In this document: piece after piece, positions 1 through 42,018 of the stretch | How positions within the stretch are numbered: position 1 is the stretch's first letter | Layout of the letters: each line of letters starts with the position of its first letter | Position numbers and translations under genes: made by a program | Origin: a virus | DNA length: 50,914 bases | Reading direction: 5' to 3' (one strand) | Virus record (IMG/VR): IMGVR_UViG_3300046167_000433 | Coordinates: 1 to 50,914 of that record | The notes under the pieces: model-generated | Told to the model about the DNA's origin: nothing | Database searches by the model: none | What the model saw: the letters and a program-made list of their open reading frames with translations, nothing else

Positions 1-1
1 G

Positions 2-4522: not shown

Positions 4523-4548
4523 CGGACACCCCACAGAGGAACCGTGTA

Positions 4549-5448
4549 ATGAAAGTAGATCCAGCAAAACTTGAAGCGGAAGCACAGGAATTAATAGCTC
4601 AGTACAAAGGTGAAGTTCCGGCCCCTCAAGAAGAGGAAACGCCAGAGGAAGTTCAACCTGAAGCAGAGTTAGCGGCACCCGAAGAGCCATCGGAAACTGC
4701 CGAAGTACCTGTGGAGGCTCCTGTCGAAGATGAGCGCGGCGAATTATCTGAGGCAGAGTTAGCACTTAAAAAGGCTGATGAACGCTACAAGAATGCGCAA
4801 AGGAAGATGACTCAGGCGACCACTGAGGCTAAGGAACTGCGACGTATGAACGAGCAGGTCATGGCTGAACTGGGACAAATGAAGCGTCAGCTTGCGGAGA
4901 AAGACATTGATCTAGAGAAGTTGAAGCAGGTCAGGGAAGAGTACCCAGACTTAGCGGCACCAATTCTGGATGAGATGGAAAGGACGCAGGCAAAGGTAGA
5001 CGAGCAACATGCCGAACTTGAAGCACTCCGCAATATGCGAGAGCAGGATGCAGTCCAAGAGGCGCAGAACGCGCACATGGATCGCATTCGGGAAGCTCAC
5101 CCAGACTTGGACAACATTGTTCAAACGGGAGACTGGGCTGACTGGCTGGAGGTGCAGAACGCGCAAGTTCAGAGCTGGATTGAATCCGGTTCATCGAACG
5201 ACGTAAACGCGGCTCTGTACAAATTCAAGAGCGACATGGGTGTGGGTCAACCGACGCCGCAAGAGCGGGTACTGGAAAAGGCGAAAGCGGCGGCAGAGCC
5301 AAAGCTCCCTAAATCCAGAAAGCCCGATACTGGTGCCGGACAAAAAGTCTGGTCTGCGGCTGATATCAAGAGCATGTCTCTGAAAGACTTCGAGGCAAAT
5401 CAAGGCGCTCTGATGGATGCATGGAGACAGGGACAAATCCGGCGTTAA
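4549..5448 (+). CDS. Scaffold / capsid assembly protein
   Basis: A 299-residue protein directly before the coat gene. The N-terminal 80 residues are very acidic and Pro/Glu-rich (QEEETPEEVQPE). Residues about 65-170 are a long predicted coiled coil with many Gln, Glu and Lys, and the C terminus is basic and ends near WRQGQIRR. Order, charge layout and length fit scaffolding proteins that template the procapsid and then leave. GAGG precedes the ATG. Function is inferred from position and composition. Confidence 0.8.
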   Translation: MKVDPAKLEAEAQELIAQYKGEVPAPQEEETPEEVQPEAELAAPEEPSETAEVPVEAPVEDERGELSEAELALKKADERYKNAQRKMTQATTEAKELRRMNEQVMAELGQMKRQLAEKDIDLEKLKQVREEYPDLAAPILDEMERTQAKVDEQHAELEALRNMREQDAVQEAQNAHMDRIREAHPDLDNIVQTGDWADWLEVQNAQVQSWIESGSSNDVNAALYKFKSDMGVGQPTPQERVLEKAKAAAEPKLPKSRKPDTGAGQKVWSAADIKSMSLKDFEANQGALMDAWRQGQIRR

Positions 5449-5477
5449 TTAAAACTCTTGCATAGAGGTATTTAACG

Positions 5478-6347
5478 ATGGCTATTGGCGCAGGTGCTTC
5501 AAACTTTACTTACGCGAGCGGACAGGCTGGTTTCATTCCAGAAGTTTTCTCAAAATTATTGCAGGCGAAGTTCTACAGTTCTTCGGTTCTTCCTGCTATT
5601 TCAAACACTGACTACGAAGGCGAGATCTCTGGCCAAGGCGATAAGGTTCACATCCGAACCGTGCCGAACGTCACAGTTGCAGACTATAACGGTGCGATCA
5701 GCTACGCTGACTTGACCACTAGCACAGTCGAGCTTCTGATCGATCAAGCTAAGTCGTATGCGTTCAAGATGGACGACGTGCTATCTGCACAGGGCGATAT
5801 CGATATGTTGGCTGAAGCATCTAAGGATGCCGCTGAGTCTATGCGTATCGCAGTTGAGACGGACGTACTGGCTAACGTAGTGACTGGAGCGACCACTATT
5901 GGTTCGCAGACCACCATTACTTCCAGCAACATCCTTACCAACATCCTTGACATCGCTAAGGAGTTGGACGAGTTGAACATCCCTGAAGAGGGTCGATTCA
6001 TCGTTCTGCCTCCCAGCATGGTTTCTCTGTTAAAGCAGAGTGAACTGCGTCAAGCGTACCTGACGGGTGATGCGACTTCGCCTCTCCGTAACGGTCAGGT
6101 GGGTCAGGTAGATCGCTTCACGGTCTATCAGAGCAATCTGCTCTACACCGCCACGTCTGGTGCTGATGACACTTACACCCACGTTCTCGCGGGTCACCCC
6201 AAGGCAATCACGTTTGCTTCTCAGTTCACTAACACTGAGACAGTACGACTTGAGTCCACCTTTGGTGACGGCGTTCGCGGACTGAAGGTTTATGGCCGCA
6301 AGGTCGTAACTCCAGACTGCCTCGCTGTAGGTAAGTGGAAGGTCTAA
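5478..6347 (+). CDS. Major capsid protein, HK97 fold, P22 coat-like family
   Basis: A 289-residue coat protein. Family-like blocks are FIPEVFSKLLQAKFYSSSVL near the N terminus, DYEGEISGQGDKVHIRTVP, then LLIDQAKSYAFKMDDV (the E-loop/spine region of this coat family), and a C-terminal GLKVYGRKVVTPD. The gene follows the scaffold and is followed by a strong terminator, a common layout that allows high coat expression. Codon use and composition match the neighbours. I see no fused decoration domain. Confidence 0.92.
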   Translation: MAIGAGASNFTYASGQAGFIPEVFSKLLQAKFYSSSVLPAISNTDYEGEISGQGDKVHIRTVPNVTVADYNGAISYADLTTSTVELLIDQAKSYAFKMDDVLSAQGDIDMLAEASKDAAESMRIAVETDVLANVVTGATTIGSQTTITSSNILTNILDIAKELDELNIPEEGRFIVLPPSMVSLLKQSELRQAYLTGDATSPLRNGQVGQVDRFTVYQSNLLYTATSGADDTYTHVLAGHPKAITFASQFTNTETVRLESTFGDGVRGLKVYGRKVVTPDCLAVGKWKV

Positions 6348-6356
6348 GACCTAATC

Positions 6357-6379
6357 GGGGGAGGGTTTCCTCCCCCTTT
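6357..6379 (+). terminator. Rho-independent terminator after the coat gene
   Basis: Perfect 8-bp GC-rich stem GGGGGAGG / CCTCCCCC with loop GTTT, followed by TTT. It starts 10 nt after the coat stop. It probably acts partly, keeping coat transcript levels above those of downstream tail genes. Confidence 0.8.
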
Positions 6380-6398
6380 CACTTTCAGGGAGAGATAA

Positions 6399-6674
6399 GT
6401 GAACGAAGCCAAGACCGAGAAAGACGATCTGTACATCGAGGCCAAGGAAGAGTTTGGCATCACCCTAGATAGACGACAGACCTTGGGTGATTTGCAAGAT
6501 CAGATGGACAGAATTAGGAAGACTGGAAAACAGCCGGAGAAGGTTCTGCCAGCAAGGATGCCGAAAAAGCTTCGCAACATCGTGACCGGAAATATTTTCG
6601 ATTACGACCCCTTGTTCGCAAAGAATCCCGATCTGGAAATAATTGAATGGGAGGCTACGGATGGCGACGACTAA
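6399..6674 (+). CDS. Small head-associated protein of unknown function
   Basis: A 91-residue charged protein starting with GTG (GGGAGAG upstream). It contains an N-terminal helical LEM/HeH-like stretch (EEFGITLDRRQTLGDLQDQM) and then a short beta-rich tail (LRNIVTGNIFDYDPLFAKNPDLEIIEW). Small proteins of this type often sit between coat and the first adaptor. The end overlaps the next start by 14 nt. The LEM/HeH resemblance is by eye only. Confidence 0.65.
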   Translation: MNEAKTEKDDLYIEAKEEFGITLDRRQTLGDLQDQMDRIRKTGKQPEKVLPARMPKKLRNIVTGNIFDYDPLFAKNPDLEIIEWEATDGDD

Positions 6675-7314
6675 GGTCAATGACATACTTGATCGTGCCG
6701 GTATCATCCTACAGGACACTTCAAATACTAGGTTTGCAAGCGCAGACCTTTTAAAGTTTTTTAATGACGGTCAGCGCGAGGTTGTAATTTACCGACCCGA
6801 CGCGAACGTCACTAACGCTACGTTTACTTGTGCCGCTGGTAGCAAGCAGTCCTTACCTTCGGCGGCTATTCGCCTGATCGATATCACTAGGAACATCGAC
6901 GGTAGAGCGGTCAGTCAGATTGATCGAAAGATGCTGGACGAGTCACTGCCCAACTGGCACAACTCGACGGCAGACAGCGATAGGAAGATTGAACACTTTG
7001 TCTACGATCCAACAGACCCTAAGAACTTTTACGTCTATCCGCAGGCGCTAAACAGCTTTCAGCTAGAAGTAATCTACAGCGAGTCTCCGGCAGATGTTGT
7101 TTTGTCAAACTTCACAACCGACACGACAACTATCACGTTGGATGACCCTTACGCGAACGCGCTGTTGGACTTCATTCTTTATCGTGCATATCAAATTGAC
7201 TCTGAGTTCGCAGGTAACGCAGAGAAATCATTGATGCATTACCGATCATTTACAAATGGCTTGGGAGCCAAGACGCAGGGTGACTCAGCGTCCGATCCCA
7301 GAGTAGGAGCTTAA
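6661..7314 (+). CDS. Head-tail adaptor (DUF6682-like, tail tubular A-like)
   Basis: A 217-residue protein with the pattern RFASADLLKFFNDGQREVVIYRPDA near the N terminus and DPYANALLDFILYRAYQID near the C terminus, typical of phage adaptor proteins that attach to the portal ring. I start at ATG 6661, which has GGGAGG 7 nt upstream, instead of the TTG at 6643. By analogy with P22 gp4 and T7 gp11 it would form the adaptor ring below the portal. Confidence 0.75.
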   Translation: MATTKVNDILDRAGIILQDTSNTRFASADLLKFFNDGQREVVIYRPDANVTNATFTCAAGSKQSLPSAAIRLIDITRNIDGRAVSQIDRKMLDESLPNWHNSTADSDRKIEHFVYDPTDPKNFYVYPQALNSFQLEVIYSESPADVVLSNFTTDTTTITLDDPYANALLDFILYRAYQIDSEFAGNAEKSLMHYRSFTNGLGAKTQGDSASDPRVGA

Positions 7315-7316
7315 TA

Positions 7317-7940
7317 GTGAAGTTTCTCGACATTTCAGATTTCGTAAGAACAGAGGCTAGAGGCGCTCCAGAATTTCTTGTTGAGAGGGTAGTAAGAGAG
7401 TCAGCCACAGAGTTTTGCGTCAAGACGGACGTGTATCGCTTAGAGCCTGAAACGATCCAAGTGATCTCAGGGATCGATGAGTACGACTTAACCATCCCTA
7501 ATGGCACTGAGCTAAATCACATTATCGATGTGTACAGGGGGCATCGGACATTACAGCCCGTGTCCTACTCTCGATTGCTTGAGGTTAAGGGAGACGGCAC
7601 AACAACCGGACAGCCTAGATGCTATTCGCAATTACAAAGCACATCTTTCTATGTGGCCCCAGTTCCTTCGGCTTCTGAAACGCTAAGCGTTCTGTATTCA
7701 GTTAAGCCGACATCTACGGCCAGCAGTATTCCCGACTATATAGGCAAGGCGTATAGAGAGCCGATTGTTCACGGAGCGCTTTATAGGTTGCAGATGATGC
7801 CTAACCAGCCGTGGTCAGATCAAGGAAGTGCGCAAGCAAACAAGTCTCTCTGCGACCAGCGGACTGCTCAGGTTCTTCGAGAGGTTCGCTATGGCTATGG
7901 CGGCGGCTCTATGACAGTTAAATCGAGGGCGTTTATCTAA
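7317..7940 (+). CDS. Second head-tail connector / tail protein
   Basis: A 207-residue protein starting with GTG, 2 nt after the previous stop, with GGAG upstream. Visible pattern: MKFLDISDFVRTEARGAPEFLVERVVRESATEFC at the N terminus (read in parts), then QVISGIDEYDL and a helical C terminus IGKAYREPIVHGALYRLQMMPNQPW. This resembles small podoviral connector proteins that follow the adaptor. The overlap with the next gene (TAATG) indicates coupled translation. Exact role is inferred. Confidence 0.6.
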   Translation: MKFLDISDFVRTEARGAPEFLVERVVRESATEFCVKTDVYRLEPETIQVISGIDEYDLTIPNGTELNHIIDVYRGHRTLQPVSYSRLLEVKGDGTTTGQPRCYSQLQSTSFYVAPVPSASETLSVLYSVKPTSTASSIPDYIGKAYREPIVHGALYRLQMMPNQPWSDQGSAQANKSLCDQRTAQVLREVRYGYGGGSMTVKSRAFI

Positions 7941-8317
7941 TGGCTTATTCAGACACGATTAATCTTGTCGTCGGCGACACACTCCCAGAAGTGACGGTCA
8001 CTCTTCGAGATTCCAATAAGGCGGCATCTGGACAGACTCTTGATCCCGAAAACTCAGCGACTTGGGATCCGATTGATCTCACTGGCGCAACTGTTCGCAT
8101 GAGAATCCGAAAGGTTGGATCTGCGACTGTATCCAGCACGTTGACTATGACTGTTGTTAGCCCTCCAACAAACGGCAAGGCGACCACCAACTTCCCTGAC
8201 GGAACTCTATCTGAGGCGGGGGTGTTTGAGGCAGAGGTGGAGATTACTTACAGCACGGGTGCTAAGCAGACTGTGAACGACTTGCTGAAGCTGAAGATCA
8301 GGGATGACTTCGATTAA
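7940..8317 (+). CDS. BppU-N/Ig-like beta domain structural protein
   Basis: A 125-residue beta-rich protein. It has LVVGDTLPEVTVTLRDSN, then PIDLTGATVRMRIRK, GKATTNFPDGTLSEAGVFEAEVEITYSTG and a final KLKIRDDFD. This is the pattern of the N-terminal domain of phage BppU-type baseplate/tail proteins, a small beta sandwich that docks fibres. It lies at the head of the tail-fibre block and overlaps the next gene by one base. Confidence 0.65.
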   Translation: MAYSDTINLVVGDTLPEVTVTLRDSNKAASGQTLDPENSATWDPIDLTGATVRMRIRKVGSATVSSTLTMTVVSPPTNGKATTNFPDGTLSEAGVFEAEVEITYSTGAKQTVNDLLKLKIRDDFD

Positions 8318-9213
8318 TGTTAAGAGCCGCCTACTCATATCAACTGATTAAGGCGTCTGCTCAGCGGACGGCGGTTTCGTTCGCCTCCGATTCTGTCAAT
8401 ACATCTTTCCGCGTTTCATTTGCTGATTTGACGGCAAGTCTTGATTACATCAGCCTATCTGCAAGCTATTTGGTTATTGCTGAAAGTCTCAATCGATTTT
8501 TTGACGACTCTTTTGCGTTTGCCGATCTTGCCAGCCTATCGGTTAGTAAGTCCGCATCTGATTCACTAGGCGTTACGGAGCTTTCTGTTCTTTCTGTACA
8601 GAAGTCGTTAACAGAGTCAGTCGGGGTATCCGATCAGTTCACAAAGGTTTTGATTATCAATCGAGACTTTACTGAGTCACTGGCTGTGGCTGAAGCAGTT
8701 TCTCTAACAGTTTCGTTTGGCAAGTCAGAAGCAATCTCCGTTTCTGATCTGACATCGATTAGCTCATCTAGGGGCGAAGCTGATGCAGTGGCGGTCAGCG
8801 AGGCAACGACTCTTCTAGTGGGTAAGTCTCAAGGTGACTCGCTCTCAGTATCCGAGCAGGTATCGAAGGCATTTAGCACTTCACTAACTGATGCTTTCAC
8901 TTTAGATGACCTTCTCAATTCAGAGCTTACTCAGACTCTTGATAAGGCTAACGTCTTTGGGGTGACAGAGGTTCTGACCTTCGCCAGCACAAAAGTTTTA
9001 TCTGACTCTACATCTATAGCTGAATCGATTGCGATCAGTGCCGCACGTTCAGTAGCAGATACGCTCGCAATGCAAGAGTCTCTGACCGCCCAGTTTGCTA
9101 AGTCCTTGTCTGACTCCACATCAGTATCGGAATCAATCTCCGTAACGCTGATCTCAGGTTCCGGCAGTGTGTTTAACCAAGGCGCATTTAATGCGTTCGC
9201 TTTTAACGAGTAG
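8317..9213 (+). CDS. Ser/Val-rich repeat fibre protein
   Basis: A 298-residue protein made almost wholly of degenerate units of roughly 20 residues with the core D-S-x-x-V-S-E followed by 9-12 hydroxyl-rich residues (for example DSLSVSEQVSKAF, ESVGVSDQFTK, DSTSVSESISV). At least ten units can be read. The C terminus is an aromatic stretch ending NAFAFNE. Such repeats usually build elongated fibrous or adhesive structures on virions. No enzymatic motif is visible. It overlaps the preceding gene by one base. Confidence 0.6.
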   Translation: MLRAAYSYQLIKASAQRTAVSFASDSVNTSFRVSFADLTASLDYISLSASYLVIAESLNRFFDDSFAFADLASLSVSKSASDSLGVTELSVLSVQKSLTESVGVSDQFTKVLIINRDFTESLAVAEAVSLTVSFGKSEAISVSDLTSISSSRGEADAVAVSEATTLLVGKSQGDSLSVSEQVSKAFSTSLTDAFTLDDLLNSELTQTLDKANVFGVTEVLTFASTKVLSDSTSIAESIAISAARSVADTLAMQESLTAQFAKSLSDSTSVSESISVTLISGSGSVFNQGAFNAFAFNE

Positions 9214-9224
9214 GGAGAAACGAA

Positions 9225-9647
9225 ATGTTTCAAGATGGAATGAAAATGAGCGGCAAGCTCACGATCACACTGAACGACAAGGTCGTGCAAGAGGTCGATA
9301 ACTTGGTTGTGACTTCGGGCAAAGCGTTTGTTGCTTCCCGAATGATCGGAACAAGCGCCAGTGTCATGAGCCACATGGCTGTCGGTAGTGGATCTACTGC
9401 CGCCGCCGCTAATGATACGGCTCTTGGTAGTGAGCTAGGCCGAACTACTGCGACCTCTAGCGCGTCTGGTGCGGTTGTGACTTACGCCTCAACTTTTGCC
9501 GCTGGCACGGGAACGGGTGCAGTCACTGAAGCAGGTCTCTTCAACGCTTCTAGCTCTGGTGACATGCTCTGTCGCACGGTTTTCTCTGTGGTAAATAAAG
9601 GCGCGTCGGACTCCATGACGATTTCATGGACGGTTACCGTTTCCTAA
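9225..9647 (+). CDS. Phage tail structural protein (small beta-rich family)
   Basis: A 140-residue protein with the recognisable pattern AFVASRMIG, HMAVGSGSTAAAANDTALGSE, VTYASTFAAGTGTGAVTEAGLFNA and a terminal NKGASDSMTISWTVTV. I recognise this as a common tail-associated family of environmental phages, often next to fibre genes. It probably forms a trimeric collar or fibre base domain. Start is ATG 9225 with GGGAGAAA upstream; ATG 9240 is an alternative. Confidence 0.6.
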   Translation: MFQDGMKMSGKLTITLNDKVVQEVDNLVVTSGKAFVASRMIGTSASVMSHMAVGSGSTAAAANDTALGSELGRTTATSSASGAVVTYASTFAAGTGTGAVTEAGLFNASSSGDMLCRTVFSVVNKGASDSMTISWTVTVS

Positions 9648-9659
9648 GAGGGCTAATCG

Positions 9660-10427
9660 ATGGCGGTTAAGTTCAGTAATAACGTCAAGACCGAGCTTGC
9701 TTCTGCAATAAACAGTTCTGCAACAAGCATATCGGTCACAGATGCGTCTGGCTTCCCGACTCTGTCGGGCAGTGACTTTACGCTGGCGACCATCGTTGAC
9801 ACCGGCAACTCTGCGCTTCTCGAAGTTGTAAAGGTTACGGGAATCTCAAGCAATACGCTGACGGTAGTAAGGGCGCAGGAAGGCACAACGGCAAGAGCCT
9901 TTGACTCGTCCGATAAGGTTGAGCTTCGCCTGACCGCAGGACTTCTAGAGACGGCTATAGACGATGCGTCAGGCGGTATTTCCTACGCCCGAGTTACGGC
10001 TAACCACACGATGGTTGCTGGTACGGGAGTTATCGCTGACACGACGGGGGGTGCGTTTACCGTAACCCTACCGGCCTCTCCGTCTGTCGGTGATGAAGTT
10101 GCTATTGCTGACGGCGGAAGCTGGGGCGTTGCCTACCTTACGGTGGCTCGTAACGGGTCAACGATTGAAGGGCTTGCGGAAGACTTAACGCTAGATGTTA
10201 GCGGACTAAAGGTGGGTCTTGTGTATGACGGCACCACTTGGCAGGTATATCCATCAGCGGGAATTTTTGCTGGCGCATCAGGCGGTGCGTTTTACAAAAA
10301 CAATCAGGTCGTCTCGTCTGACGTAACCATACTATCAACCGAAAATGCGATGACCACTGGCCCAGTAAGCGTCAATTCAGGAGTGAATATGACGATTCAG
10401 TCGGGTGCCAGAGTCGTCGTGTTGTAA
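9660..10427 (+). CDS. Tail fibre protein
   Basis: A 255-residue beta-rich protein. The N terminus (MAVKFSNNVKTELASAINSS, then FPTLSGSDFTLATI) is a virion-attachment module seen in tail proteins of environmental phages. The middle (VTLPASPSVGDEVAIADGG) resembles a carbohydrate-facing beta domain, and the C terminus ends GARVVVL, like a trimeric beta-helix cap. It belongs to a run of fibre genes in one direction. Confidence 0.6.
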   Translation: MAVKFSNNVKTELASAINSSATSISVTDASGFPTLSGSDFTLATIVDTGNSALLEVVKVTGISSNTLTVVRAQEGTTARAFDSSDKVELRLTAGLLETAIDDASGGISYARVTANHTMVAGTGVIADTTGGAFTVTLPASPSVGDEVAIADGGSWGVAYLTVARNGSTIEGLAEDLTLDVSGLKVGLVYDGTTWQVYPSAGIFAGASGGAFYKNNQVVSSDVTILSTENAMTTGPVSVNSGVNMTIQSGARVVVL

Positions 10428-10437
10428 GGGATAAATA

Positions 10438-11280
10438 ATGTCGAGAATTGCATTAAATGCTAACGCAAGTGGCTCCGGTGTTTTCACTATTGAGTCGCCC
10501 AACTCCGATACAGATCGGACATTAAACCTGCCTGACAAAGCTGGCACGGTTCAGGTCGGTGAGGGTATTGACGATAACGCTACGTCTACTGCTCTCACTA
10601 TTACGTCAGGTGAGTATGTGGGCTTGGGAAATGCTGATCCTGTTACTCCGTTTGATGTGACTGCTCGCTCAGGCGCATTCGCAATGGCTATGAGAGCTAG
10701 GTCAAATAATGACTATGCCTTTTTTGGCATGAGGTCTTATGACGGCACAGAAGATTTAGGTGACATTGCGATACTGCGTACAGCGGCAGATACAGGTCGG
10801 ATGCTTTTTTATACAAACAACGGCGGTTCCGCGACTGTAAAGATGAGCATTTTGCCTAGTGGCGGGATTACTTTTAACGGCGACACAGCCGCCGCAAATG
10901 CTCTTGATGATTACGAAGAAGGAACGTGGACGCCTTCAATTTCATCGGGCATTAATTCAATTAGCTACAACACTGCAATTGGTCACTACACAAAAGTAGG
11001 AAATCTGGTCAACACGGACTTTTATACGAGGGTTACTGGCACAGGAAGTGGCGCACAATTTGTTGTTTCTGGTCTGCCTTACGCAATAAAAAATACAAAT
11101 GCTATTAGAGGTGGTGGATGGTCAACCTACCAAAACATTTCCAGCAATACTGTGCAGTTTTACGGATCCCAAGGAGGAACTTTTTTCTATTGTTATATTA
11201 ATGGATATAGCACTTTTACAACGACAAGTAGTCTCAACGGCCATTTTTTAATTGGCACATTTAGCTATATCACCGCTTAA
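10438..11280 (+). CDS. Tail fibre with exchangeable C-terminal tip (copy 1)
   Basis: A 280-residue fibre protein. It contains TLNLPDKAGTVQVGEGIDDNATSTALTITSGEYVGLG (in parts), a typical trimer shaft, then ALDDYEEGTWTPSIS, after which a tip of about 110 residues begins. The anchor LDDYEEGTWTP is shared with the gene at 16383, and identical DNA of 27 nt runs there (10909-10935 against 16782-16808), yet the tips differ. The stop lies inside a 70-nt repeat also found after the second copy. This makes it a likely receptor-binding fibre. Confidence 0.7.
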   Translation: MSRIALNANASGSGVFTIESPNSDTDRTLNLPDKAGTVQVGEGIDDNATSTALTITSGEYVGLGNADPVTPFDVTARSGAFAMAMRARSNNDYAFFGMRSYDGTEDLGDIAILRTAADTGRMLFYTNNGGSATVKMSILPSGGITFNGDTAAANALDDYEEGTWTPSISSGINSISYNTAIGHYTKVGNLVNTDFYTRVTGTGSGAQFVVSGLPYAIKNTNAIRGGGWSTYQNISSNTVQFYGSQGGTFFYCYINGYSTFTTTSSLNGHFLIGTFSYITA

Positions 11281-11347
11281 CAATTACCCCTCTCGGAGAT
11301 TGGGGCAGACAGTCCATAGCCAAAGGAGATAAACATGGCACTCACAG
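11278..11347 (+). repeat. Fibre-cassette flank repeat, copy 1
   Basis: About 70 nt matching 17181-17250 with about five mismatches. It runs from the fibre stop codon to the fourth codon of the next gene. It holds the stem CCCC-TCT / AGA-TT-GGGG at 11287-11305, whose 3-nt loop differs between copies while the stem is kept, and the Shine-Dalgarno AAAGGAGAT before ATGGCACT. Confidence 0.85.
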
Positions 11348-11592
11348 AATCAGTAGAAGTAGACAAGGTAGAAATCGTAGGCCCGTACAAGGCAGTGCAA
11401 GTTCGCACGGCTACGGTTATCTACAAAGATGACGTAGAAATCTCTCGCGGGTTCCATCGTCACGTTATCAGTGCAGGCGATGACTATAGCAACGAGACAG
11501 AAGAAGTGCAGGCTATCTGTGCCGCTGTTCACACTCAGGAAGTTATCGACGCTAAGGAAGAGAATGATGCCGCTAACGCGCCGCAGGGGTAA
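11335..11592 (+). CDS. Small acidic phage protein of the tail-fibre block
   Basis: An 85-residue protein beginning MALTESVEVDKVEIVGPYK, with a central VRTATVIYKDDVEISRGFHRHVI stretch. This short family often follows fibre genes in environmental phages; no function is known to me. Its start and leader lie in the duplicated 70-nt segment, and a decayed counterpart of the same start lies at 17238. The Shine-Dalgarno AAAGGAG is strong. Confidence 0.65.
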   Translation: MALTESVEVDKVEIVGPYKAVQVRTATVIYKDDVEISRGFHRHVISAGDDYSNETEEVQAICAAVHTQEVIDAKEENDAANAPQG

Positions 11593-11594
11593 AA

Positions 11595-12008
11595 ATGTCT
11601 GACCTAAACGTACAAAATCTCAACAGCAAGACAGGCAACTCAGCGATCTCTATTGCTGATAACGGCACTGTCTCGTTGTCTACTGCGGCGTCTGGTTCCA
11701 CCCAAACAGCTAACGCTACAAACTCGACAACTCTGGACTTCAGCACCTATCAGAACTTTGTTTTGACGCTGACAGGTAACGTCACGCTGGCTAACCCCAC
11801 GACTGAGGCAGTAGGGCAGTCAGGTTTCATCGTGATGATTCAAGACGGTACTGGTGGACGTACTGTGTCTCTTGGTACTGACTACGAGACTGCTAATGGA
11901 GCAGGGCTTACCCTGTCTTCTGCCGCAAGCACTACAGACATTGTGCCTTACGTTGTTGCCGCAGGTGGTCGCATCTTGCTTGGCGCGGCACAACTCGCGT
12001 TTGCGTAG
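11595..12008 (+). CDS. Small fibre-associated beta protein
   Basis: A 137-residue protein with TTLDFSTYQNFVLTLTGNVTLANP, then GQSGFIVMIQDGTGGRTVSLGTDYE and DIVPYVVAAGGRILLGAAQLAFA at the end. This pattern is common in fibre-tip or base proteins of environmental phages. It lies 2 nt after the previous gene. Its precise role on the virion is inferred only from context. Confidence 0.6.
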   Translation: MSDLNVQNLNSKTGNSAISIADNGTVSLSTAASGSTQTANATNSTTLDFSTYQNFVLTLTGNVTLANPTTEAVGQSGFIVMIQDGTGGRTVSLGTDYETANGAGLTLSSAASTTDIVPYVVAAGGRILLGAAQLAFA

Positions 12009-12017
12009 AGGTTAGCT

Positions 12018-14378
12018 ATGGCCTTTGGCTCAGAACAATGGATGTATGCATCGGGCTTCTATCCGCATGAGATAGGTAACTCTTCGCGTGTAAATAACGG
12101 CACCTATTACACAAGAACACCCTCGTCTGGTGGTAATGAAAAAACTTGGACATGGAGTGCTTGGGTAAAAAACAGCGGCGTAACCATCGGAGGATACCTT
12201 TTAAGTGCGGGCGCGTCAGGAAATAGAGAGTTCCTTATCTACTTTGATGGTACAAACCAGAGAATTAACGTATATCAATACAGTTCTGGTGCTGTACGGG
12301 CATCAGTAATAACAAGCGCACAATTTCGTGACCCTTCCGCTTGGTACCATTTTGTTGTAGCGGTAGATACGACTCAGACAACAGCATCAGACAGACTTAA
12401 AATATACGTCAATGGCGAGCAACAAACTGATTTTGCTTCTGCTCAGTATCCAGCCCAAAATTTAGATACGCTTGTATCCTCTACTGATATTCACGATATA
12501 GGTAAAAATGCTTACAACCAGAATGTCTTTTCTAACTTTTATATAACTGAAGTTAATTACATAAACGGCTCTGCGTTGACTGCTTCTAGCTTTGGCGAAA
12601 CCAAGGCAGACACATGGATTCCTAAGAAGTACGCAGGCAGTTATGGCAGTCACGATTACTACCTAAACTTTGCTACTAGGGCTACTAATCCTATCGACGC
12701 TTCAGGTCAAGGAAACAACTGGACAAGCGTAAACGTAGCGGCAGTGTCTTGGATGCTTGATAGCCCGACGAATAACTTTTGTACGTTGAATCCTTTGGCG
12801 CAATTTGGTTCCCCACCAATTTCAGAAGGTAATTTAAAAGTAGAACTGGCTAACGGCTCTGATGGTGTGTTTGCTTCTATTCAGCCTACTGGCAAGAAAT
12901 ATTATTGGGAGGCGCTTTTATTATCTGGGATAGAAGGCTATGGGGTAATGGCAAATAGCGGAAACGCCTCCAGTGCTACCAATACTCTTTACTATACAGA
13001 TGGTCGTATTTATGTAGCTAACTCTTTAGTTACTAGTTCAGCGACCACTGCAACGAGCGGAGATATTATAGGTATTGAGTATGACCCTACCGCAGAGACA
13101 ATAAAGTTCTTCAAAAATAATACCCAGATAGGAAGCACTTATGCCGCAACAGGCGATGGGCTACTCCCATTTGCAGGAGGAACGGGTAATGGCTCTGGCG
13201 TTAGCGTATTCAACTTTGGTCAAGCCTCTGATTTTGCTGGGAACAAAACAGCACAAGGCAACACAGACGCCAACGGACTTGGTGACTTCTACTACGCACC
13301 ACCAGCAGGCTTCCTAGCCCTATGTACGGCTAACCTGCCTGATCCAGCAACGGCGTTTAATCCTGCTGTAAACAACAGCCCACAAGATCACTTTAATACT
13401 GTGCTGTACACGGGTAACGGTAGCACTAACAACATTACAGGCGTTGGGTTTCAGCCTGACTTTGTGTGGATAAAATCAAGAAGTGAAACATACTGGCACC
13501 GTGCGTTTGATGTACTTAGAGGTGCAACAAAACAGTTATACCAAAATGAGAGTTCCGCTGAAGCTACAGAAAGTACGTCACTAACCGCTTTTGGTAGCGA
13601 TGGCTTTACCCTTGGCAGTTTTCAATATACCAATAACAATAACAGTACCTTTGTCTCTTGGAACTGGAAAGCCAGTAATAGTGCTGGATACAACAATGAC
13701 GGCACTATTCAATCTATCGTGTCTGCTAATACTGATGCTGGATTTAGTGTTGTTGCCTACACCGTCCCTTCTGGCGGGGGTTTTTCTGTAGGTCACGGAT
13801 TAAACTCTACCCCAAAAATAATTTTGTCAAAAAATCGTGACACCACTTCAAATTGGGATGTGTATAGCGAAGTCATTGGAAATACAAAAAGGTTGATGCT
13901 AAACCTCACCAACGCCCCTGACACACAGCCAGCATGGAATAACACTACGCCCACCTCTTCTGTTTTTTATAGTGTTGGTGGAGGCTCTTGGCATGGAGTT
14001 GGTAGCCGAATAATAAATTATGTATTTAGTGAAGTAGAAGGTTTCAGCAAGTTCGGAACGTACACAGGCAACGGAAGCGCAGACGGCCCCTTTATCTACA
14101 CAGGGTTTAGGCCAGCTTTTGTGATGTTTAAGCGCACTGACTCAGCGGTAAATTGGGTAATGTATGACACATCCCGCGACCCCTATAACTATGTTGATAA
14201 TACTCTGTATCCAGACGAAGCTTGGGCCGAAAACCCTGCTGGTTCAGCGCTGTTAGATATTGTAAGCAACGGATTTAAATTAAGGAGTGCTGGTGGTACT
14301 GCTCTAAACACAAGTAGTGGGACTTATCTTTACATGGCATTTGCTGAGATGCCCTTCAAATACGCCAACGCGAGGTAA
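12018..14378 (+). CDS. Large tail fibre with LamG-like, SPRY-like and DUF7483-like domains
   Basis: A 786-residue putative adhesin. Residues about 35-190 look like a LamG/concanavalin-type lectin (TWTWSAWVKNSG, WYHFVVAVDTTQ, RLKIYVNGEQQTDF). Residues about 285-405 resemble SPRY (KKYYWEALLLSGIEGYGV, DIIGIEYDPTAETIKFFKNNTQIG). From about 450 the sequence LYTGNGSTNNITGVGFQPDFVWIKS, with a second related half, matches what I know as DUF7483. Such combinations bind host surface glycans. Domain names are by eye. Confidence 0.75.
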   Translation: MAFGSEQWMYASGFYPHEIGNSSRVNNGTYYTRTPSSGGNEKTWTWSAWVKNSGVTIGGYLLSAGASGNREFLIYFDGTNQRINVYQYSSGAVRASVITSAQFRDPSAWYHFVVAVDTTQTTASDRLKIYVNGEQQTDFASAQYPAQNLDTLVSSTDIHDIGKNAYNQNVFSNFYITEVNYINGSALTASSFGETKADTWIPKKYAGSYGSHDYYLNFATRATNPIDASGQGNNWTSVNVAAVSWMLDSPTNNFCTLNPLAQFGSPPISEGNLKVELANGSDGVFASIQPTGKKYYWEALLLSGIEGYGVMANSGNASSATNTLYYTDGRIYVANSLVTSSATTATSGDIIGIEYDPTAETIKFFKNNTQIGSTYAATGDGLLPFAGGTGNGSGVSVFNFGQASDFAGNKTAQGNTDANGLGDFYYAPPAGFLALCTANLPDPATAFNPAVNNSPQDHFNTVLYTGNGSTNNITGVGFQPDFVWIKSRSETYWHRAFDVLRGATKQLYQNESSAEATESTSLTAFGSDGFTLGSFQYTNNNNSTFVSWNWKASNSAGYNNDGTIQSIVSANTDAGFSVVAYTVPSGGGFSVGHGLNSTPKIILSKNRDTTSNWDVYSEVIGNTKRLMLNLTNAPDTQPAWNNTTPTSSVFYSVGGGSWHGVGSRIINYVFSEVEGFSKFGTYTGNGSADGPFIYTGFRPAFVMFKRTDSAVNWVMYDTSRDPYNYVDNTLYPDEAWAENPAGSALLDIVSNGFKLRSAGGTALNTSSGTYLYMAFAEMPFKYANAR

Positions 14379-14383
14379 CAACA

Positions 14384-14908
14384 ATGGCATGGAGATATAA
14401 CGACAGCGTTATCCGCGAAGGCAGAAGCTGGACGGATGATGATGGAATTAAGCATCCCTCTAATTGGGGGTCATGGTCAGACGAAGAGAAGACTGAAGCT
14501 GGTCTAGCGTGGGTAGATGACCCTGCTCCGTTTGACTCACGGTTTTACTGGGCGGCAGACGTACCCAAGTCGCTAGATGACGTACACGAAGTAGACGAAG
14601 ACGGCGAGCCTGCTTACGGCCCAGACGGTAAACCCGTTGTAACGCTGGGCCTAAAGTCTCAAGAGTGCGCCAAGGTCAAAGCACAGGCAGGTAGCTTGCT
14701 GGCTTCTACTGATTGGTACGTTATACGCAAGTCTGAAACTGACGTTGCTGTACCCGCTGATGTGCTGACTTACAGAGCGGCTGTACGCACACGCTCAGGT
14801 GATCTTGAAAGCGCAATCAACGCTTGCGAAACACACGATGCTTTTATGGCTCTCTTTGAATCGACAGAAGAGCAACCCTCAATATTCTCAAACTGGCCCG
14901 AGATGTAA
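14384..14908 (+). CDS. Tail fibre assembly chaperone-like protein
   Basis: A 174-residue protein with RYNDSVIREGRSWTDDDGIKHPSNW at the N terminus and KVKAQAGSLLASTDWYVIRKSE, VPADVLTYRAAVRTRSGDLE at the C terminus. The C-terminal half resembles the DUF4376/Tfa-type chaperones that help fold fibres and are encoded next to them. It sits between two fibre genes. Confidence 0.65.
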   Translation: MAWRYNDSVIREGRSWTDDDGIKHPSNWGSWSDEEKTEAGLAWVDDPAPFDSRFYWAADVPKSLDDVHEVDEDGEPAYGPDGKPVVTLGLKSQECAKVKAQAGSLLASTDWYVIRKSETDVAVPADVLTYRAAVRTRSGDLESAINACETHDAFMALFESTEEQPSIFSNWPEM

Positions 14909-14912
14909 GAAT

Positions 14913-15119
14913 ATGGCAAAGCTATCTGACTATGTAGATCAAGGCAGTACAACCTCCGAGATTAAGTTGCTCGACAGTATTACTACGTCAGCTACAGCCA
15001 CTTACGCTCTAACAAAAAATGGAACTGCTTACTCGCCGGACTCTGCTCGCAACCTAATAGTGTCATTGAACGGAGTGACGCAAGCACCTCAAGCTGCCTA
15101 CACAGGTGTCAGGGTCTAA
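14913..15119 (+). CDS. N-terminal piece of a frame-split tail fibre
   Basis: Codes 68 residues (MAKLSDYVDQGSTTSEIKLL, then SLNGVTQAPQAAYT) before leaving the family pattern as GVRV and stopping. The pattern continues one frame over as VSGSNIVFDSALTSADVIDYIL, beginning at GTG 15106. Leaving out a single G at 15105-15106 would join them into AAYT-VSGSNIVF. I therefore read this and 15106-16383 as one fibre gene with an extra base. The ATG at 14913 is preceded by a weak Shine-Dalgarno. Confidence 0.7.
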   Translation: MAKLSDYVDQGSTTSEIKLLDSITTSATATYALTKNGTAYSPDSARNLIVSLNGVTQAPQAAYTGVRV

Positions 15120-16383
15120 CATCGTGTTCGATTCTGCTCTGACCAGCGCGGATGTCATCGATTACATTCTGGTTATTGGCAGTGCAATAAGCATTGGTAC
15201 GCCATCAGACGGGACTGTGGGTACAGCGCAGATGAGTTATCCGCTGGGCAACTTTAGCTCTACTGGTATTGATGATAATGCTACGTCAACGGCAGTCACA
15301 ATTGATTCTTCTGGCAATCTCTTAATGAACACCACTAAAGAGATTCAGTTCTATGCTTCAACGTATGGAATTCGAGCGTCTACTGGATTAGAAATAAAGA
15401 CCGGCGACTTTACGCGCTTCTTGAAAGGAAGCACTGAATATATGCGTATTGATACCTCTGGTAACGTAGGAATTGGCACTACGAGTCCGGTAGCAGGAAC
15501 AAAGTTAACGCTTAATGACAGTGCTTTTGGTGGTATGCAGTTTCAAAGTGGTGGTTCTGATTGTGGTTACATTGGCGTAAACACCAACACACTTTATATA
15601 GGTGGCGGCGAAAAAATAGTATTTCACACAGGGAATGCACAAGCTGTTGATGGCTCTAGTCGGATGCGTATCGACAGTAATGGAAAGCTTCTGATCAATA
15701 GATCTTCTACTAGCGGATCACCTTCAATGCTGTCTCTTCAACAAGTAGGAGGAAATTTTAGTAGCACAACTGTAACTAGAACAGAAATGACAGGAATTAC
15801 TCTAGCTGACAGTAATGGTGCCAACAATAAGGGTACTGGTATTTGGTTTGATTCAGGTTCTCTGTTAGCTGGAATAGCATCAGCTAGGGAAAATGTAGGA
15901 AACTGGGGAACAGATTTAAGGTTTTATACTCACCCCAATACTACCACTAATGTAAGCGATACTTACGAGCGGATGAGGATCACTCCAGCAGGACAACTAA
16001 TTCTCCGTGCTGTGAAAGACGATACAACATCAGACAGTGCAAACATGAACATCAGGTCGGCTGATGGTTTAGTTAGACGAGTTAGTTCAAGTAGACGTTA
16101 CAAAAACTCTATTGTTGATTCGCCACACGGACTTAATGAACTGCTTGCGTTACGTTCGGTACGCTACAAAGGGAACAACGACGGCGATAAAATTTTTGGT
16201 GGTTTTATTGCTGAAGAAGTTCACGAAGCAGGGCTAACTGAGTTTGTCCAATACAACGAAGAAAATGAGCCTGATGCTTTAGCGTATGCACAGATGGTAG
16301 CTCTTTGCACGAAAGCCATCCAAGAACAACAAGCAATCATTGAAGAACTACAGACCCGACTCTCTGCGTTGGAGGCTAACTAA
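15106..16383 (+). CDS. Tail fibre shaft with C-terminal S74 intramolecular chaperone
   Basis: A 425-residue continuation of the gene at 14913. It contains shaft motifs (GIDDNATSTAVTIDSSGN, NVGIGTTSP) and ends with SSSRRYKNSIVDSPHGLNELLALRSVRYKG, then GGFIAEEVHEAGL and a coiled-coil tail (AIQEQQAIIEELQTRLSALEAN in parts). This end is the peptidase S74 chaperone domain, which helps trimerise the fibre and then cuts itself off at the Ser-Lys site. The GTG start is probably not a genuine start but the far side of a frameshift. Confidence 0.8.
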   Translation: MSGSNIVFDSALTSADVIDYILVIGSAISIGTPSDGTVGTAQMSYPLGNFSSTGIDDNATSTAVTIDSSGNLLMNTTKEIQFYASTYGIRASTGLEIKTGDFTRFLKGSTEYMRIDTSGNVGIGTTSPVAGTKLTLNDSAFGGMQFQSGGSDCGYIGVNTNTLYIGGGEKIVFHTGNAQAVDGSSRMRIDSNGKLLINRSSTSGSPSMLSLQQVGGNFSSTTVTRTEMTGITLADSNGANNKGTGIWFDSGSLLAGIASARENVGNWGTDLRFYTHPNTTTNVSDTYERMRITPAGQLILRAVKDDTTSDSANMNIRSADGLVRRVSSSRRYKNSIVDSPHGLNELLALRSVRYKGNNDGDKIFGGFIAEEVHEAGLTEFVQYNEENEPDALAYAQMVALCTKAIQEQQAIIEELQTRLSALEAN

Positions 16384-17183
16384 TGGCTATTACTAAAACA
16401 CAAGGCCCGTTCTCCCAAGGCATTGACGATAACGCAGATGCTACTGCGATAACTATCAATAGTTCTGAGCAGGTTGGCATTGGTACTACGAGTCCTACTG
16501 ACAAGCTACACGTTTCGGTAGGTTCATCGGGCGCATCTGCTCACTCTTATACTGATCTTTTGCTAGAAAGCAGTTCGCACACGGCTATTCAAATTTCTGG
16601 CCCTAATACAGCAGAGCAGGCAATTTGGTTTGCTGATCCACAAGCATCAACGGCGGGTGGAATTATGTACTACCACCCCCATAACTCTCTGACATTTAGG
16701 ACGGCAGAAACAAGCCGACTGCGCGTTGATAGTGATGGGTTGAAGTTTGGGAATGATACAGCCGCCTCTAATGCTTTAGACGATTACGAAGAAGGAACGT
16801 GGACGCCTACTATTGAGGGGTATGGTCAAACCACCCCAGCGTCACAAACATATTCCTCTCAAGTAGGGCGTTACATAAAAGTAGGCCATCTTGTTTTAGC
16901 GACTTACGCAGTCACCTTTACTAGTAAAGGCAATATGTCTGGTAACTATGTTTTGCTCAAGGGCTGGCCGTTTAATAGGGCCAACGCCAATACTTATGGC
17001 GGCATAGGGTATTTTAATCATATGTCTACGGGTGTGAGTTCTATGTGGTGGGAGCTAACGAACTCAGCCGGTTGGTTGGCTTACGTCAGTACGTCAGGCA
17101 ATACCACTTCTACATATATGACAGCATCAGGAATTAGTAACAGCACCATTATTCAAGGCTCCGTAGTCTATTACGCCACATAA
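16383..17183 (+). CDS. Tail fibre with exchangeable C-terminal tip (copy 2)
   Basis: A 266-residue fibre protein. The N-terminal part has GIDDNADATAITINSSEQVGIGTTSP, the middle RLRVDSDGLKFGNDTAASNALDDYEEGTWTPTI, and then a tip of about 120 residues that is unlike copy 1 (10438) except for a few aromatic positions. The DNA around the LDDYEEGTWTP anchor and the 70 nt behind the stop match copy 1. It overlaps the previous stop (TAATG). Confidence 0.7.
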   Translation: MAITKTQGPFSQGIDDNADATAITINSSEQVGIGTTSPTDKLHVSVGSSGASAHSYTDLLLESSSHTAIQISGPNTAEQAIWFADPQASTAGGIMYYHPHNSLTFRTAETSRLRVDSDGLKFGNDTAASNALDDYEEGTWTPTIEGYGQTTPASQTYSSQVGRYIKVGHLVLATYAVTFTSKGNMSGNYVLLKGWPFNRANANTYGGIGYFNHMSTGVSSMWWELTNSAGWLAYVSTSGNTTSTYMTASGISNSTIIQGSVVYYAT

Positions 17184-17250
17184 CCATTACCCCTCTTAGA
17201 GATTGGGGCGGACAGTCCATAGCCAAAGGAGATAAACATGGCACTTACAG
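17181..17250 (+). repeat. Fibre-cassette flank repeat, copy 2
   Basis: Second copy of the 70-nt segment at 11278-11347. The hairpin CCCC-TCT-TAG-AGA-TT-GGGG is at 17190-17208. The Shine-Dalgarno and ATGGCACT are kept, but the gene behind it is reduced to 13 codons. Confidence 0.85.
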
Positions 17251-17279
17251 GCGCAACTGCAAACAGCATAAACGAGTAA
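17238..17279 (+). pseudogene. Remnant of the small MALT-start gene
   Basis: The strong Shine-Dalgarno AAAGGAG leads to ATG and 13 codons (MALTGATANSINE) and a stop. The first four residues and the whole leader match the intact 85-residue gene at 11335. It is most simply a leftover of a duplicated fibre cassette. A functional 13-residue peptide cannot be excluded. Confidence 0.55.
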
Positions 17280-17301
17280 TTTCCTAGAATCCAAGGAGAG
17301 G

Positions 17302-17514
17302 ATGATGTCAGAAGAGACAATCAGCATTGATGGTGTTGAGCATGACCTAGATTCTTTGTCTGATGAGCAGAAATATATGCTCAGCCAGATACAAGATATT
17401 CAGAAGAAAGCGGCATCACTGCGTTTTTCTTTAGATCAGTTAACCGTGGCACAGGATGTGTTTACACAAAATTTAGTTGGCTCTCTAAAGGGAGATGATC
17501 AGGAGGCGGCATGA
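17302..17514 (+). CDS. DUF6447-like small protein
   Basis: A 70-residue protein with ISIDGVEHDLDSLSDEQKYMLSQIQDIQ and a following coiled helix (RFSLDQLTVAQDVFTQNL). This is the pattern of DUF6447, a short family frequent in environmental phages near lysis genes; role unknown. AAGGAGAGG precedes two adjacent ATGs (17302, 17305). The end overlaps the next gene by 4 nt. Confidence 0.65.
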   Translation: MMSEETISIDGVEHDLDSLSDEQKYMLSQIQDIQKKAASLRFSLDQLTVAQDVFTQNLVGSLKGDDQEAA

Positions 17515-39982: not shown

Positions 39983-41005
39983 TCAGTCTCCCATTTTGAC
40001 TTTGATTTGGCGTGTGTTGGATGAGGATCTAAAGTCTTCTAGCTCATGGCCGTTTGACAGCAACGCCGCCTCACCACCAATAGCTTCAAATCCCTTCCGG
40101 AAATCGAACGATGCTTTGCGCTTGATGCACTGCAATTGGATGACACCATCCGTCACGTTCCTGTTCGAGTACTTGTCAGCGACGACTTTCTTCGCGTCAT
40201 TCACCACGTTTTCGAGACCCAAAATCTCTCCGAGAATGGCTGAGTGTTCCGTCCTCAGTTCGTTGAGACGCACCATTGCCTTGGAAAGAGTCTCCATTTC
40301 ATCGCCCTTGACGACCTCGTAAATGTTCTCAGCAGAGTCGGTATGAACTTTCCTCCGAGACAAGTTCTCGTATTCAGAGTGGATGTACTCATGCCATTCA
40401 ATGTAGAGATCGATGCGAGGAATCGTTCCCTTTACCGGCTTGGGTAGCAGGACTTTCGGTAGCGGCTCATGCAACCAGCCCTCTTCGCGATGGATCCGCT
40501 CGATGTTGTACTCGGGTTCTGCATCGGCGTGGGGTGACAGGTAGCAAAGAAAGTCCAGCCAATCCACATCCAGCACCTCCATGACCAACTGGCACTGACG
40601 CAAGTACATCTTCTTCTTTTCGTCCCAAACGCTGTAGGGAGCCTTTGTGAATCGAGGGTATGGGCACTTGATCTCGATAGAGCCATCCAGTCCGACAAGG
40701 CCGTCTGGCGAAGCTCCGAGAAACTCATACATTGGATGCACAACGAAGTCGGTTTCATCTACGGTGGTGTTAAACGCTCGCTCGTACCACTCCTTAGCAA
40801 CTGACTCCATCATCTGACCGTGTGCAACTGCGGGGCCACCGTTAAACTCTGACGGCGCTCCGGCTAGGTCTCGCACCATAGACCTGACAAGGTCATCTGG
40901 CTTTTGATACGGATTGCACTGCTCTAAAACACCAACGGCAGTTCCGCTTATCTTTCCTTTTCTCTGCTCAAGCCATTCGACTGAACCCTGTTCTACAGCC
41001 GCCAT
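39983..41005 (-). CDS. YqaJ-type (lambda Exo-like) viral recombinase exonuclease
   Basis: A 340-residue nuclease. N-terminal pattern QGSVEWLEQRKGKISGTAVG is the YqaJ box, HGQMMESVAKEWYE carries the conserved Glu, and FLGASPDGLVG with SIEIKCP supplies the PD-(D/E)xK catalytic Asp and Glu-x-Lys. These enzymes resect 5' ends for annealing proteins. The C-terminal third is helical (MVRLNELRTEHSAILGEIL). Operon with SSB and Sak3-like gene. Confidence 0.88.
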   Translation of the reverse strand: MAAVEQGSVEWLEQRKGKISGTAVGVLEQCNPYQKPDDLVRSMVRDLAGAPSEFNGGPAVAHGQMMESVAKEWYERAFNTTVDETDFVVHPMYEFLGASPDGLVGLDGSIEIKCPYPRFTKAPYSVWDEKKKMYLRQCQLVMEVLDVDWLDFLCYLSPHADAEPEYNIERIHREEGWLHEPLPKVLLPKPVKGTIPRIDLYIEWHEYIHSEYENLSRRKVHTDSAENIYEVVKGDEMETLSKAMVRLNELRTEHSAILGEILGLENVVNDAKKVVADKYSNRNVTDGVIQLQCIKRKASFDFRKGFEAIGGEAALLSNGHELEDFRSSSNTRQIKVKMGD

Positions 41006-41244
41006 ACAACACCCCGCTCGCCTAGCGCGTCGGACTCGCTAGTCCAATTTTGATTGTCGTTAAAGTCTGAGATGAGGAGGCTTGCGACTAACTCAAGAAA
41101 ACCGGATCGTCTTGCCCGAGCAGGGTTACCTGCCCAAGTTATCCCAGCCGCTTCCAAGTTAAGTCTGCTCCAGATATTGTTAGCCATCTCGCAATCACCA
41201 ATGCAGTACAGCCATCGTTGAGCATTCGTATTATTTGTTTTCAT
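40993..41244 (-). CDS. Hypothetical protein
   Basis: An 83-residue protein (MKTNNTNAQRWLYCIGDCEMAN start; LEAAGITWAGNPARARRSGFLELVASLLISDFN). Overlaps both neighbours in the recombination operon. No motif recognised. Confidence 0.55.
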   Translation of the reverse strand: MKTNNTNAQRWLYCIGDCEMANNIWSRLNLEAAGITWAGNPARARRSGFLELVASLLISDFNDNQNWTSESDALGERGVVWRL

Positions 41245-41924
41245 GATTTAAACCCTTCGCTTTTAGTAGAACTTCCCAGCGCTCATGGAACTCATCCTCA
41301 TCCCATTTGCGATTTGCCCATTGGCGTCCTGCCTTTGGTTTATATTTCTTGGCCGTCTCTTTTGATACAACTACCTTTGCCACTTTCTCCAAGTAAACTT
41401 GCTTTGCTTCTTCTTCTGATTTTTCGGACTGATATTTTGTATCATCTCCCACCTTACTAGGAGATACCGCCTTCTTGGTAGGCTTTTTACTAGATGAGTC
41501 GGTAATAAAGGGATAATTGTCGTGGTTGAGCCATAAATCCCATCCAAGACCTAACTCCGCCAAGGCGCGAACCCGACATCTCATCTTGGCGTTGTGGATG
41601 TCATCAGCATTAGGGTTTTGAACTGGCTTATTATTGTATCCAGTGACCGATTTGGAGACGTGAATACTGGAATTGCCCACTGCTACCGTGACTCGAACCT
41701 CTGCTGTAGTGTCAGCAAAGTAGAAAACCTCAAGCCCTTCGGGGCTTCTATCGAAGGCCCACTCGTAGTCGGGATAGTTTTTCATCATGAGCGCGTGAGC
41801 GTTCTGCCACGGCAAGTAGGGGAGCTTTATGGGCTTGCCATTATCTTCGGCATCAGACCATTTGACGTAAGGCTTTACGTCTACAGTTGGAAAGTTTCTT
41901 GAAAACGGAACTGCGATCTGGCAT
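41231..41924 (-). CDS. Sak3-like (DUF1071) ssDNA annealing protein, frame-split near start
   Basis: The body matches DUF1071/Sak3 annealing proteins: IKLPYLPWQNAHALMMKNYPDYEW, RVTVAVGNSSIHV, and MRCRVRALAELGLGWDLWL, followed by a charged linker and basic C-terminal end. The expected N terminus MPDRSSVFKKLS begins at ATG 41924 (GGGAG upstream) but in another frame. One extra T on the plus strand at 41887-41888 separates it from TVDVKPYVKW. Without that base the join is seamless. In the present frame the body can only be read from a GTG at 41983 inside promoter-like DNA. Confidence 0.75.
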
Positions 41925-41949
41925 TGGCTTACTCCCTCTCTTAGATAGG

Positions 41950-41979
41950 AGTAAACCAAAGCTAAATGTAGGATGTCAA
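41950..41979 (-). promoter_or_regulatory. Candidate leftward promoter
   Basis: On the minus strand, -35 TTGACA (41979-41974), 18-nt spacer, -10 TTTACT (41955-41950). It would start just before the Shine-Dalgarno of the Sak3-like gene and drive recombination and integrase genes. Confidence 0.4.
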
Positions 41980-42018
41980 TCACTTTACATAAGGATATGT
42001 ATATAATCGCGACAGGTC

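What the first reader, a model, noticed from the sequence alone, without database searches (positions are those of the whole stretch)
10880..17250. Duplicated fibre-tip cassette with identical flanks and unrelated tips
Genes 10438 and 16383 share the LDDYEEGTWTP anchor (27 identical nt at 10909 and 16782) and a 70-nt sequence behind the stop, yet the tips in between are unlike each other. Conserved borders around a variable middle are what recombination-driven tip exchange would need, and the phage encodes its own annealing protein and exonuclease. It could carry two receptor specificities or a spare tip.
Basis: partly seen in the sequence, partly recalled or inferred. Interest (0 to 1): 0.7.

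Follow-up and report, generated by a model that had tools for sequence, protein, structure and literature searches.

The report
Swappable receptor-tip cassettes in marine phages
This marine bacterial virus carries two tail-fibre genes that end in interchangeable tips, and comparison with sister viruses shows that the tips are replaced as whole cassettes between conserved borders while the rest of the fibre stays the same, which probably lets the viruses change which cells they recognise.

Summary
The repeats are real: 27 identical nt at 10909 and 16782, and a 65-70 nt block behind both stop codons that includes the start of the next gene. "Unrelated tips" is corrected: at protein level the tips are distant homologues (37% over 117 aa), predicted as tailspike/receptor-binding head folds.

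Tip exchange between phages is well supported. The closest relative (IMG/VR 3300046167_000757) is identical to the window for 482 nt up to base 10925, inside the anchor. It then carries a different tip A (38% aa), and similarity resumes at 96% in the border. At gene B it is identical for 824 nt, then all 24 differences start at the last anchor base. Two unrelated phages share an 89%-identical tip exactly from anchor to stop, with nothing in common on either side.

Of 52 loci fetched only through the gene downstream of tip A, 51 carry anchor and tip; tip similarity is nearly independent of shaft similarity.

The anchor is conserved as protein, not in synonymous codons, so homology-driven exchange (the phage has a Sak annealing protein and a RecE/YqaJ exonuclease) is likelier than site-specific exchange. 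Exchange between A and B inside one genome, two receptor specificities or a "spare" remain unshown. The principle is that of T-even adhesin swapping.

The parts
10438..11280 (+). Fibre gene A (280 aa): N-terminal adaptor and shaft, anchor, tip A
   Evidence: weak PHROG tail-fibre matches; shaft 100% identical to the closest relative over 10444-10925
10564..10601 (+). GIDDNATSTA joint, second repeated block (copies at 15265 and 16419)
   Evidence: Repeat D3; separates different N-terminal adaptors from shafts in relatives
10903..10935 (+). Anchor A, LDDYEEGTWTP; left join of the tip cassette
   Evidence: 27 identical nt with anchor B; window/relative similarity ends here
10936..11277 (+). Tip A (114 aa), replaced in the closest relative
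   Evidence: 38% aa to the relative's tip; model pLDDT 88.6
11278..11347 (+). Border A: stop codon, intergenic sequence, RBS, start of the 85-aa gene; right join
   Evidence: 30-mer found in 11 IMG/VR contigs, behind different LDDYEEG tips wherever the upstream gene is readable
11335..11592 (+). Downstream 85-aa gene (phrog_6228, unknown function)
   Evidence: 51 of 52 readable relatives have an anchor-tip gene directly upstream
16383..17183 (+). Fibre gene B (266 aa)
   Evidence: 824 nt left of 16783 identical to the relative
16776..16808 (+). Anchor B
   Evidence: first difference to the relative is base 16808
16809..17180 (+). Tip B (124 aa)
   Evidence: All 24 differences of gene B to the relative lie at 16808-17180; model pLDDT 89.2, Foldseek to Dettilon tailspike E 6e-4
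17181..17250 (+). Border B, same block as border A (65 nt at 93.8%)
   Evidence: absent behind tip B in the relative
17238..17279 (+). 13-codon stub of the 85-aa gene start (MALTGATANSINE*), probable scar of a transferred tip+border segment
   Evidence: Sequence; tblastn match to the window only; no 85-aa gene follows
41231..41983 (-). Sak-type single-strand annealing protein
   Evidence: PF06378 E 3.5e-13, phrog_659
39983..41005 (-). YqaJ/RecE-type recombination exonuclease
   Evidence: PF09588 E 1.4e-21, phrog_434

Best explanation
Genes A and B are two tail fibres of one modular family. Each ends in a tip cassette that starts with a protein anchor (LDDYEEGTWTP, the N-cap of a beta-rich receptor-binding head domain) and ends at the stop codon. 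Co-infecting phages, or a phage and a prophage, exchange whole tips. The left crossover falls in the DNA that encodes the conserved anchor or in the homologous shaft just before it. The right crossover falls at the stop codon or in the conserved intergenic block and the start of the next gene. Shown: the cassette limits, tip replacement between near-sisters at A and (by a 94%-similar allele) at B, transplant between unrelated phages, and tip types occurring at both fibre positions in different phages. Inferred: homologous or homeologous recombination, plausibly by the phage's Sak annealing protein and RecE-type exonuclease; tips as receptor-specificity determinants; the stub behind tip B as the scar of an imported tip+border segment.
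For: Window vs closest relative: 482 identical nt up to 10925, tip A 38% aa, then 96% from the border on. Gene B: 824 identical nt, then 24 differences all in 16808-17180. L018 vs L076: 89% nt identity from the anchor's first codon to the stop, unrelated outside. L005 second tip vs tip B: about 81% nt from just before the anchor, shaft unrelated. Border 30-mer in 11 contigs, behind different tips. Without anchor ascertainment, 51 of 52 loci found through the downstream gene carry an anchor and tip. Of 316 left ends of shared DNA blocks, 172 lie within 50 nt of a tip's stop codon. Shaft and tip similarity uncorrelated (Mantel r 0.03, p 0.17), gene-tip r 0.11, against 0.33 within the downstream gene. 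Position exchange: L005 position A vs L076 position B tips 75% aa. Recombinases.
Against: No donor almost identical to tip A or tip B was found outside the same phage, so the immediate donors are unsampled. The contigs are metagenomic assemblies; a chimeric join at a repeat cannot be excluded in a single case, though a near-identical contig (99.6% over 1-11384) supports tip A's left and right joins. The right-hand pattern alone (varied tip, conserved next gene) could arise from fast tip evolution. No binding data exist; solved relatives are C-terminal tailspike domains, so a trimerisation role is possible.
Confidence: 0.85

Rival explanations
1. No exchange: the tips simply evolve very fast under diversifying selection, while the anchor and the downstream gene are constrained.
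For: Tips are more diverse than the downstream gene (median identity 30% vs 59%). Tip B differences to the relative are mostly in nonsynonymous codons (19 of 24).
Against: 482 identical nt beside a 38% tip needs replacement, not drift. Near-identical tips occur on unrelated shafts. All 5 synonymous changes of gene B also lie in the tip part.
Confidence: 0.06
2. Site-specific recombination or homing: a recombinase recognises the anchor or border DNA, or a homing endonuclease in the border drives tip conversion.
For: The border is conserved at DNA level in a group of phages. One relative (L189) has an HNH_3/AP2 endonuclease ORF inserted in the border. The window encodes a tyrosine integrase.
Against: Across 115 exact anchors, synonymous codons are no more conserved than in the tips except one Thr codon. 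Many relatives with the anchor lack the border. No HNH ORF was seen at the window's borders, and the HNH insertion was the only exception among 52 loci. Left joins fall at different bases.
Confidence: 0.07
3. Intragenomic switch or spare: A and B exchange tips within one genome, or recombination between the direct repeats deletes or fuses them, giving phase-variable specificity.
For: 27 identical nt and 65 nt at 94% in direct orientation; anchors A and B more alike than codon use predicts; the same tip types occur at both positions in different phages.
Against: No relative with swapped A/B tips or with the 10935/16808 deletion was found. Border B is no closer to border A (93.8%) than to borders of several other phages (95.4%), so it is not a recent copy. 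Gene B is co-inherited in the relative apart from its own tip changes.
Confidence: 0.12

Closest known systems
T-even distal tail-fibre/adhesin swapping by recombination between conserved motifs (Tetart, Desplats, Krisch 1998; title cited in PMC6363177)
   Same: Conserved motifs flank a variable receptor-binding segment and recombination between them swaps it
   Different: Different protein family; here one motif is the N-cap of a C-terminal tip domain and the other border lies at the stop codon and in the next gene; two cassettes per genome. The T-even paper itself could not be read here
Variable tail-fibre C-termini in metaviromic islands of marine phages (Mizuno et al. 2014, PMC3909814)
   Same: Marine phages, conserved fibre N-terminus, C-terminal region variable or under-recruiting
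   Different: That paper reports under-recruitment; its text holds neither the word 'recombination' nor this motif
Host-recognition modules shared by distantly related Alteromonas phages A5, V22, P24 (PMC10579305)
   Same: Transfer of receptor-binding parts between unrelated marine phages
   Different: Whole ten-gene module with a chaperone; here a ~370-410 nt tip cassette moves alone
Dettilon tailspike C-terminal domain (PDB 6f7d/6f7k)
   Same: Sequence profile E 5e-4 and fold E 6e-4, probability 1.00
   Different: There it ends a tailspike; here it ends small fibres behind the LDDYEEGTWTP anchor; 16% identity
Invertible fibre-tip segments (Mu/P1 type, from general knowledge)
   Same: Two alternative tips for one fibre type in one genome
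   Different: The two copies here are in direct orientation, on complete separate genes; no invertase was found among the proteins scanned

Membership tests
Motif-bounded adhesin/tip exchange by homologous recombination (T-even type process) | Variable receptor-binding segment between conserved motifs | tested here: met
Motif-bounded adhesin/tip exchange by homologous recombination (T-even type process) | Mosaic joins at the motifs between related phages | tested here: met
Motif-bounded adhesin/tip exchange by homologous recombination (T-even type process) | Exchange changes host specificity | not testable with these tools
   No binding or infection data; the host is unknown (searches found no cellular relative)
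T4 gp37/gp38 adhesin family (protein membership) | Sequence match to gp37/gp38 families | tested here: not met
   No Pfam match for the fibre genes; PHROG matches are other tail-fibre families
Phage receptor-binding/tailspike head domain | Fold similarity of the tip to solved phage RBP or tailspike heads | tested here: met
   Tip B to 6f7d/6f7k E 6e-4; weaker for tip A, best 6r5w E 0.01, low TM
Diversity-generating retroelement | Reverse transcriptase and template repeat with adenine-directed substitutions | tested here: not met
   No reverse transcriptase among the proteins scanned (not every ORF scanned); tip B substitutions not adenine-directed
Invertible tip segment (Mu G-segment type) | Inverted repeats and a DNA invertase | tested here: not met
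   Long repeats are direct; no invertase among the proteins scanned

The most novel reading that the evidence does not exclude
The two fibre genes act as an expression site and a reservoir fed from one shared tip pool: tips arrive from other phages at either position, move between positions by anchor/border recombination inside the genome, and in some lineages a homing endonuclease in the border (as in L189) drives the conversion, making tip exchange an evolved, dedicated process rather than a by-product of general recombination.
Probability: 0.1. Interest if true: 0.75.

Novelty: new member of a known kind. Interest (0 to 1): 0.5.

Why it matters
That makes the rate and range of host-recognition switching in uncultured marine phages measurable. 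No paper in the held open-access library contains the anchor motif.

Tried and rejected
RNA hairpin in the border (CCCC...GGGG): not more stable than shuffles (z about 0 for the window's two copies), no Rfam match. Site-specific recognition of the anchor: synonymous codons not conserved. Diversity-generating retroelement: no reverse transcriptase found, substitutions not A-directed. Inversion: repeats are direct. Border B as a recent copy of border A: no closer to it than to borders of other phages. Host from prophages: the downstream gene and the portal found no relative in 84,980 cellular genomes. GenBank phages: only distant tip relatives, chiefly cyanophages. Known-motif literature: no paper with DDYEEGTW.

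Full report
Observation. The window holds two fibre genes, A (10438-11280) and B (16383-17183). Both contain LDDYEEGTWTP, with 27 identical nt at 10909-10935 and 16782-16808. Behind both stops lies the same block, 88% over 83 nt ungapped or 93.8% over 65 nt, running through the ribosome-binding site into the first codons of the next gene. After tip A that gene is complete (85 aa, phrog_6228); after tip B only a 13-codon stub remains (MALTGATANSINE*). The tips are not unrelated: 37% identity over 117 residues, E 1.8e-9.

Domain. Alignments of 75 and 36 tips keep the anchor, a YTKIGxxV motif, a Gly-Leu-Pro turn and a C-terminal Tyr, with about 31-35% mean column identity. AlphaFold2 models are confident (pLDDT 88.6 and 89.2). 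Tip B matches the C-terminal domain of the Dettilon tailspike by fold (E 6e-4, probability 1.00) and the tip profile matches it by sequence (E 5e-4); phage receptor-binding heads (Listeria PSA gp15, TP901-1) are weaker matches. A receptor-binding role is therefore likely but not shown; a trimer-clamp role is possible.

Closest relative. IMG/VR 3300046167_000757 is collinear with the window. From 10444 to 10925 the two are identical (482 nt; background in the region ranges from 64 to 100% per 100 nt). Two mismatches fall inside the anchor (10926, 10932), then the tip differs (38% aa), and similarity resumes at the stop codon at 96% and continues into the 85-aa gene. At gene B the 824 nt left of 16783 are identical, and all 24 differences of the gene lie from 16808, the last anchor base, to 17180. 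That is best read as a second replacement, by an allele about 94% similar. The five synonymous differences also lie only in that part. The relative lacks border B and the stub; it keeps about the last 24 nt of the following gene (window 17302-17514), whose homologues lie in the same order in L010. So it most likely lost the segment by deletion, and the window's arrangement is the older one of the two (inference).

Other phages. The border 30-mer occurs in 11 IMG/VR contigs; one is nearly the same phage as the window (99.6%) and two pairs of contigs are duplicates of each other. Every contig in which the upstream gene could be read has an LDDYEEG tip there, and the tips differ. Among loci fetched through the downstream gene alone, so without selecting for the anchor, 51 of 52 have an anchor-tip gene directly upstream (44 by strict motif, 7 variants by eye). 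The exception, L189, has an HNH_3/AP2 endonuclease ORF inserted in the border. In 131 non-redundant cassettes, 172 of 316 left ends of shared DNA blocks lie within 50 nt of a tip stop codon; ten pairs share a tip but not the sequence upstream, and all begin between -44 and +9 nt of the anchor. L018 (75-kb contig) and L076 (37-kb contig) share a tip at 89% nt identity from the anchor's first codon to the stop, with unrelated DNA on both sides. Tip types also change position: the position-A tip of L005 is 75% identical (aa) to the second tip of L076.

Linkage test. In 41 non-redundant loci, rank correlation of pairwise identities was 0.33 between halves of the downstream gene, 0.11 between that gene and the tip, and 0.03 (p 0.17) between shaft and tip. 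Tips reassort almost freely from shafts.

Mechanism. Across 115 exact anchors, synonymous codons are no more shared than in the tips, except one Thr codon. The anchor is thus conserved as protein and gives only short imperfect DNA homology. The phage encodes a Sak-type annealing protein and a YqaJ/RecE-type exonuclease; such proteins are known to recombine short or diverged homologies (general knowledge), so they fit, but no result here ties them to the exchange. The border does not fold better than shuffles.

What stays open. Exchange between A and B in one genome, a spare-tip role and two receptor specificities were not shown. The two anchors are more alike than codon use predicts (about 0.2% of random pairs), which fits past exchange or common origin. 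Border B is at least as close to several other phages' borders (95.4%) as to border A (93.8%), which speaks against a recent copy within this genome. The stub suggests that tip B came from a position where the 85-aa gene follows.

Placement. The process is the one described for T-even phages, recombination between conserved motifs swapping adhesin specificity (Tetart et al. 1998, seen here only as a citation in PMC6363177). Variable fibre C-termini in marine phages are known (PMC3909814), as is transfer of host-recognition modules between unrelated marine phages (PMC10579305). New here, as far as the held open-access library shows, are the tip family with its anchor and the exact cassette limits.

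Noticed in passing
L189:538-1072: An HNH_3/AP2 homing-endonuclease-like ORF (HNH_3 E 1.4e-13) sits exactly in the border between tip stop and the 85-aa gene in a relative.
   Followed up: partly
9701-10000: Inside gene 9660-10427 a ~300-nt stretch drops to 64-67% identity with the closest relative while both sides are 90-100%; another swapped segment just upstream of fibre A.
   Followed up: no
17187-17490: The closest relative lacks border B, the stub and most of the 70-aa gene 17302-17514 (only its last ~24 nt remain), which looks like a deletion starting at the border.
   Followed up: partly
L206:6050 (end of contig IMGVR_UViG_3300049916_000366): A contig 99.6% identical to the window over 1-11384 stops 37 nt past the end of the repeated border, perhaps an assembly break caused by the repeat or by tip variants.
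   Followed up: no
12018-14378: A 786-aa fibre-like protein with DUF7483 (E 1e-117) and a borderline SPRY domain lies between the two cassettes; weak DNA relatives in Roseobacter phages CRP-811 and CRP-406.
   Followed up: no
26203-34731: A 2842-aa protein with an LPD38 large polyvalent protein domain (E 3e-31).
   Followed up: no
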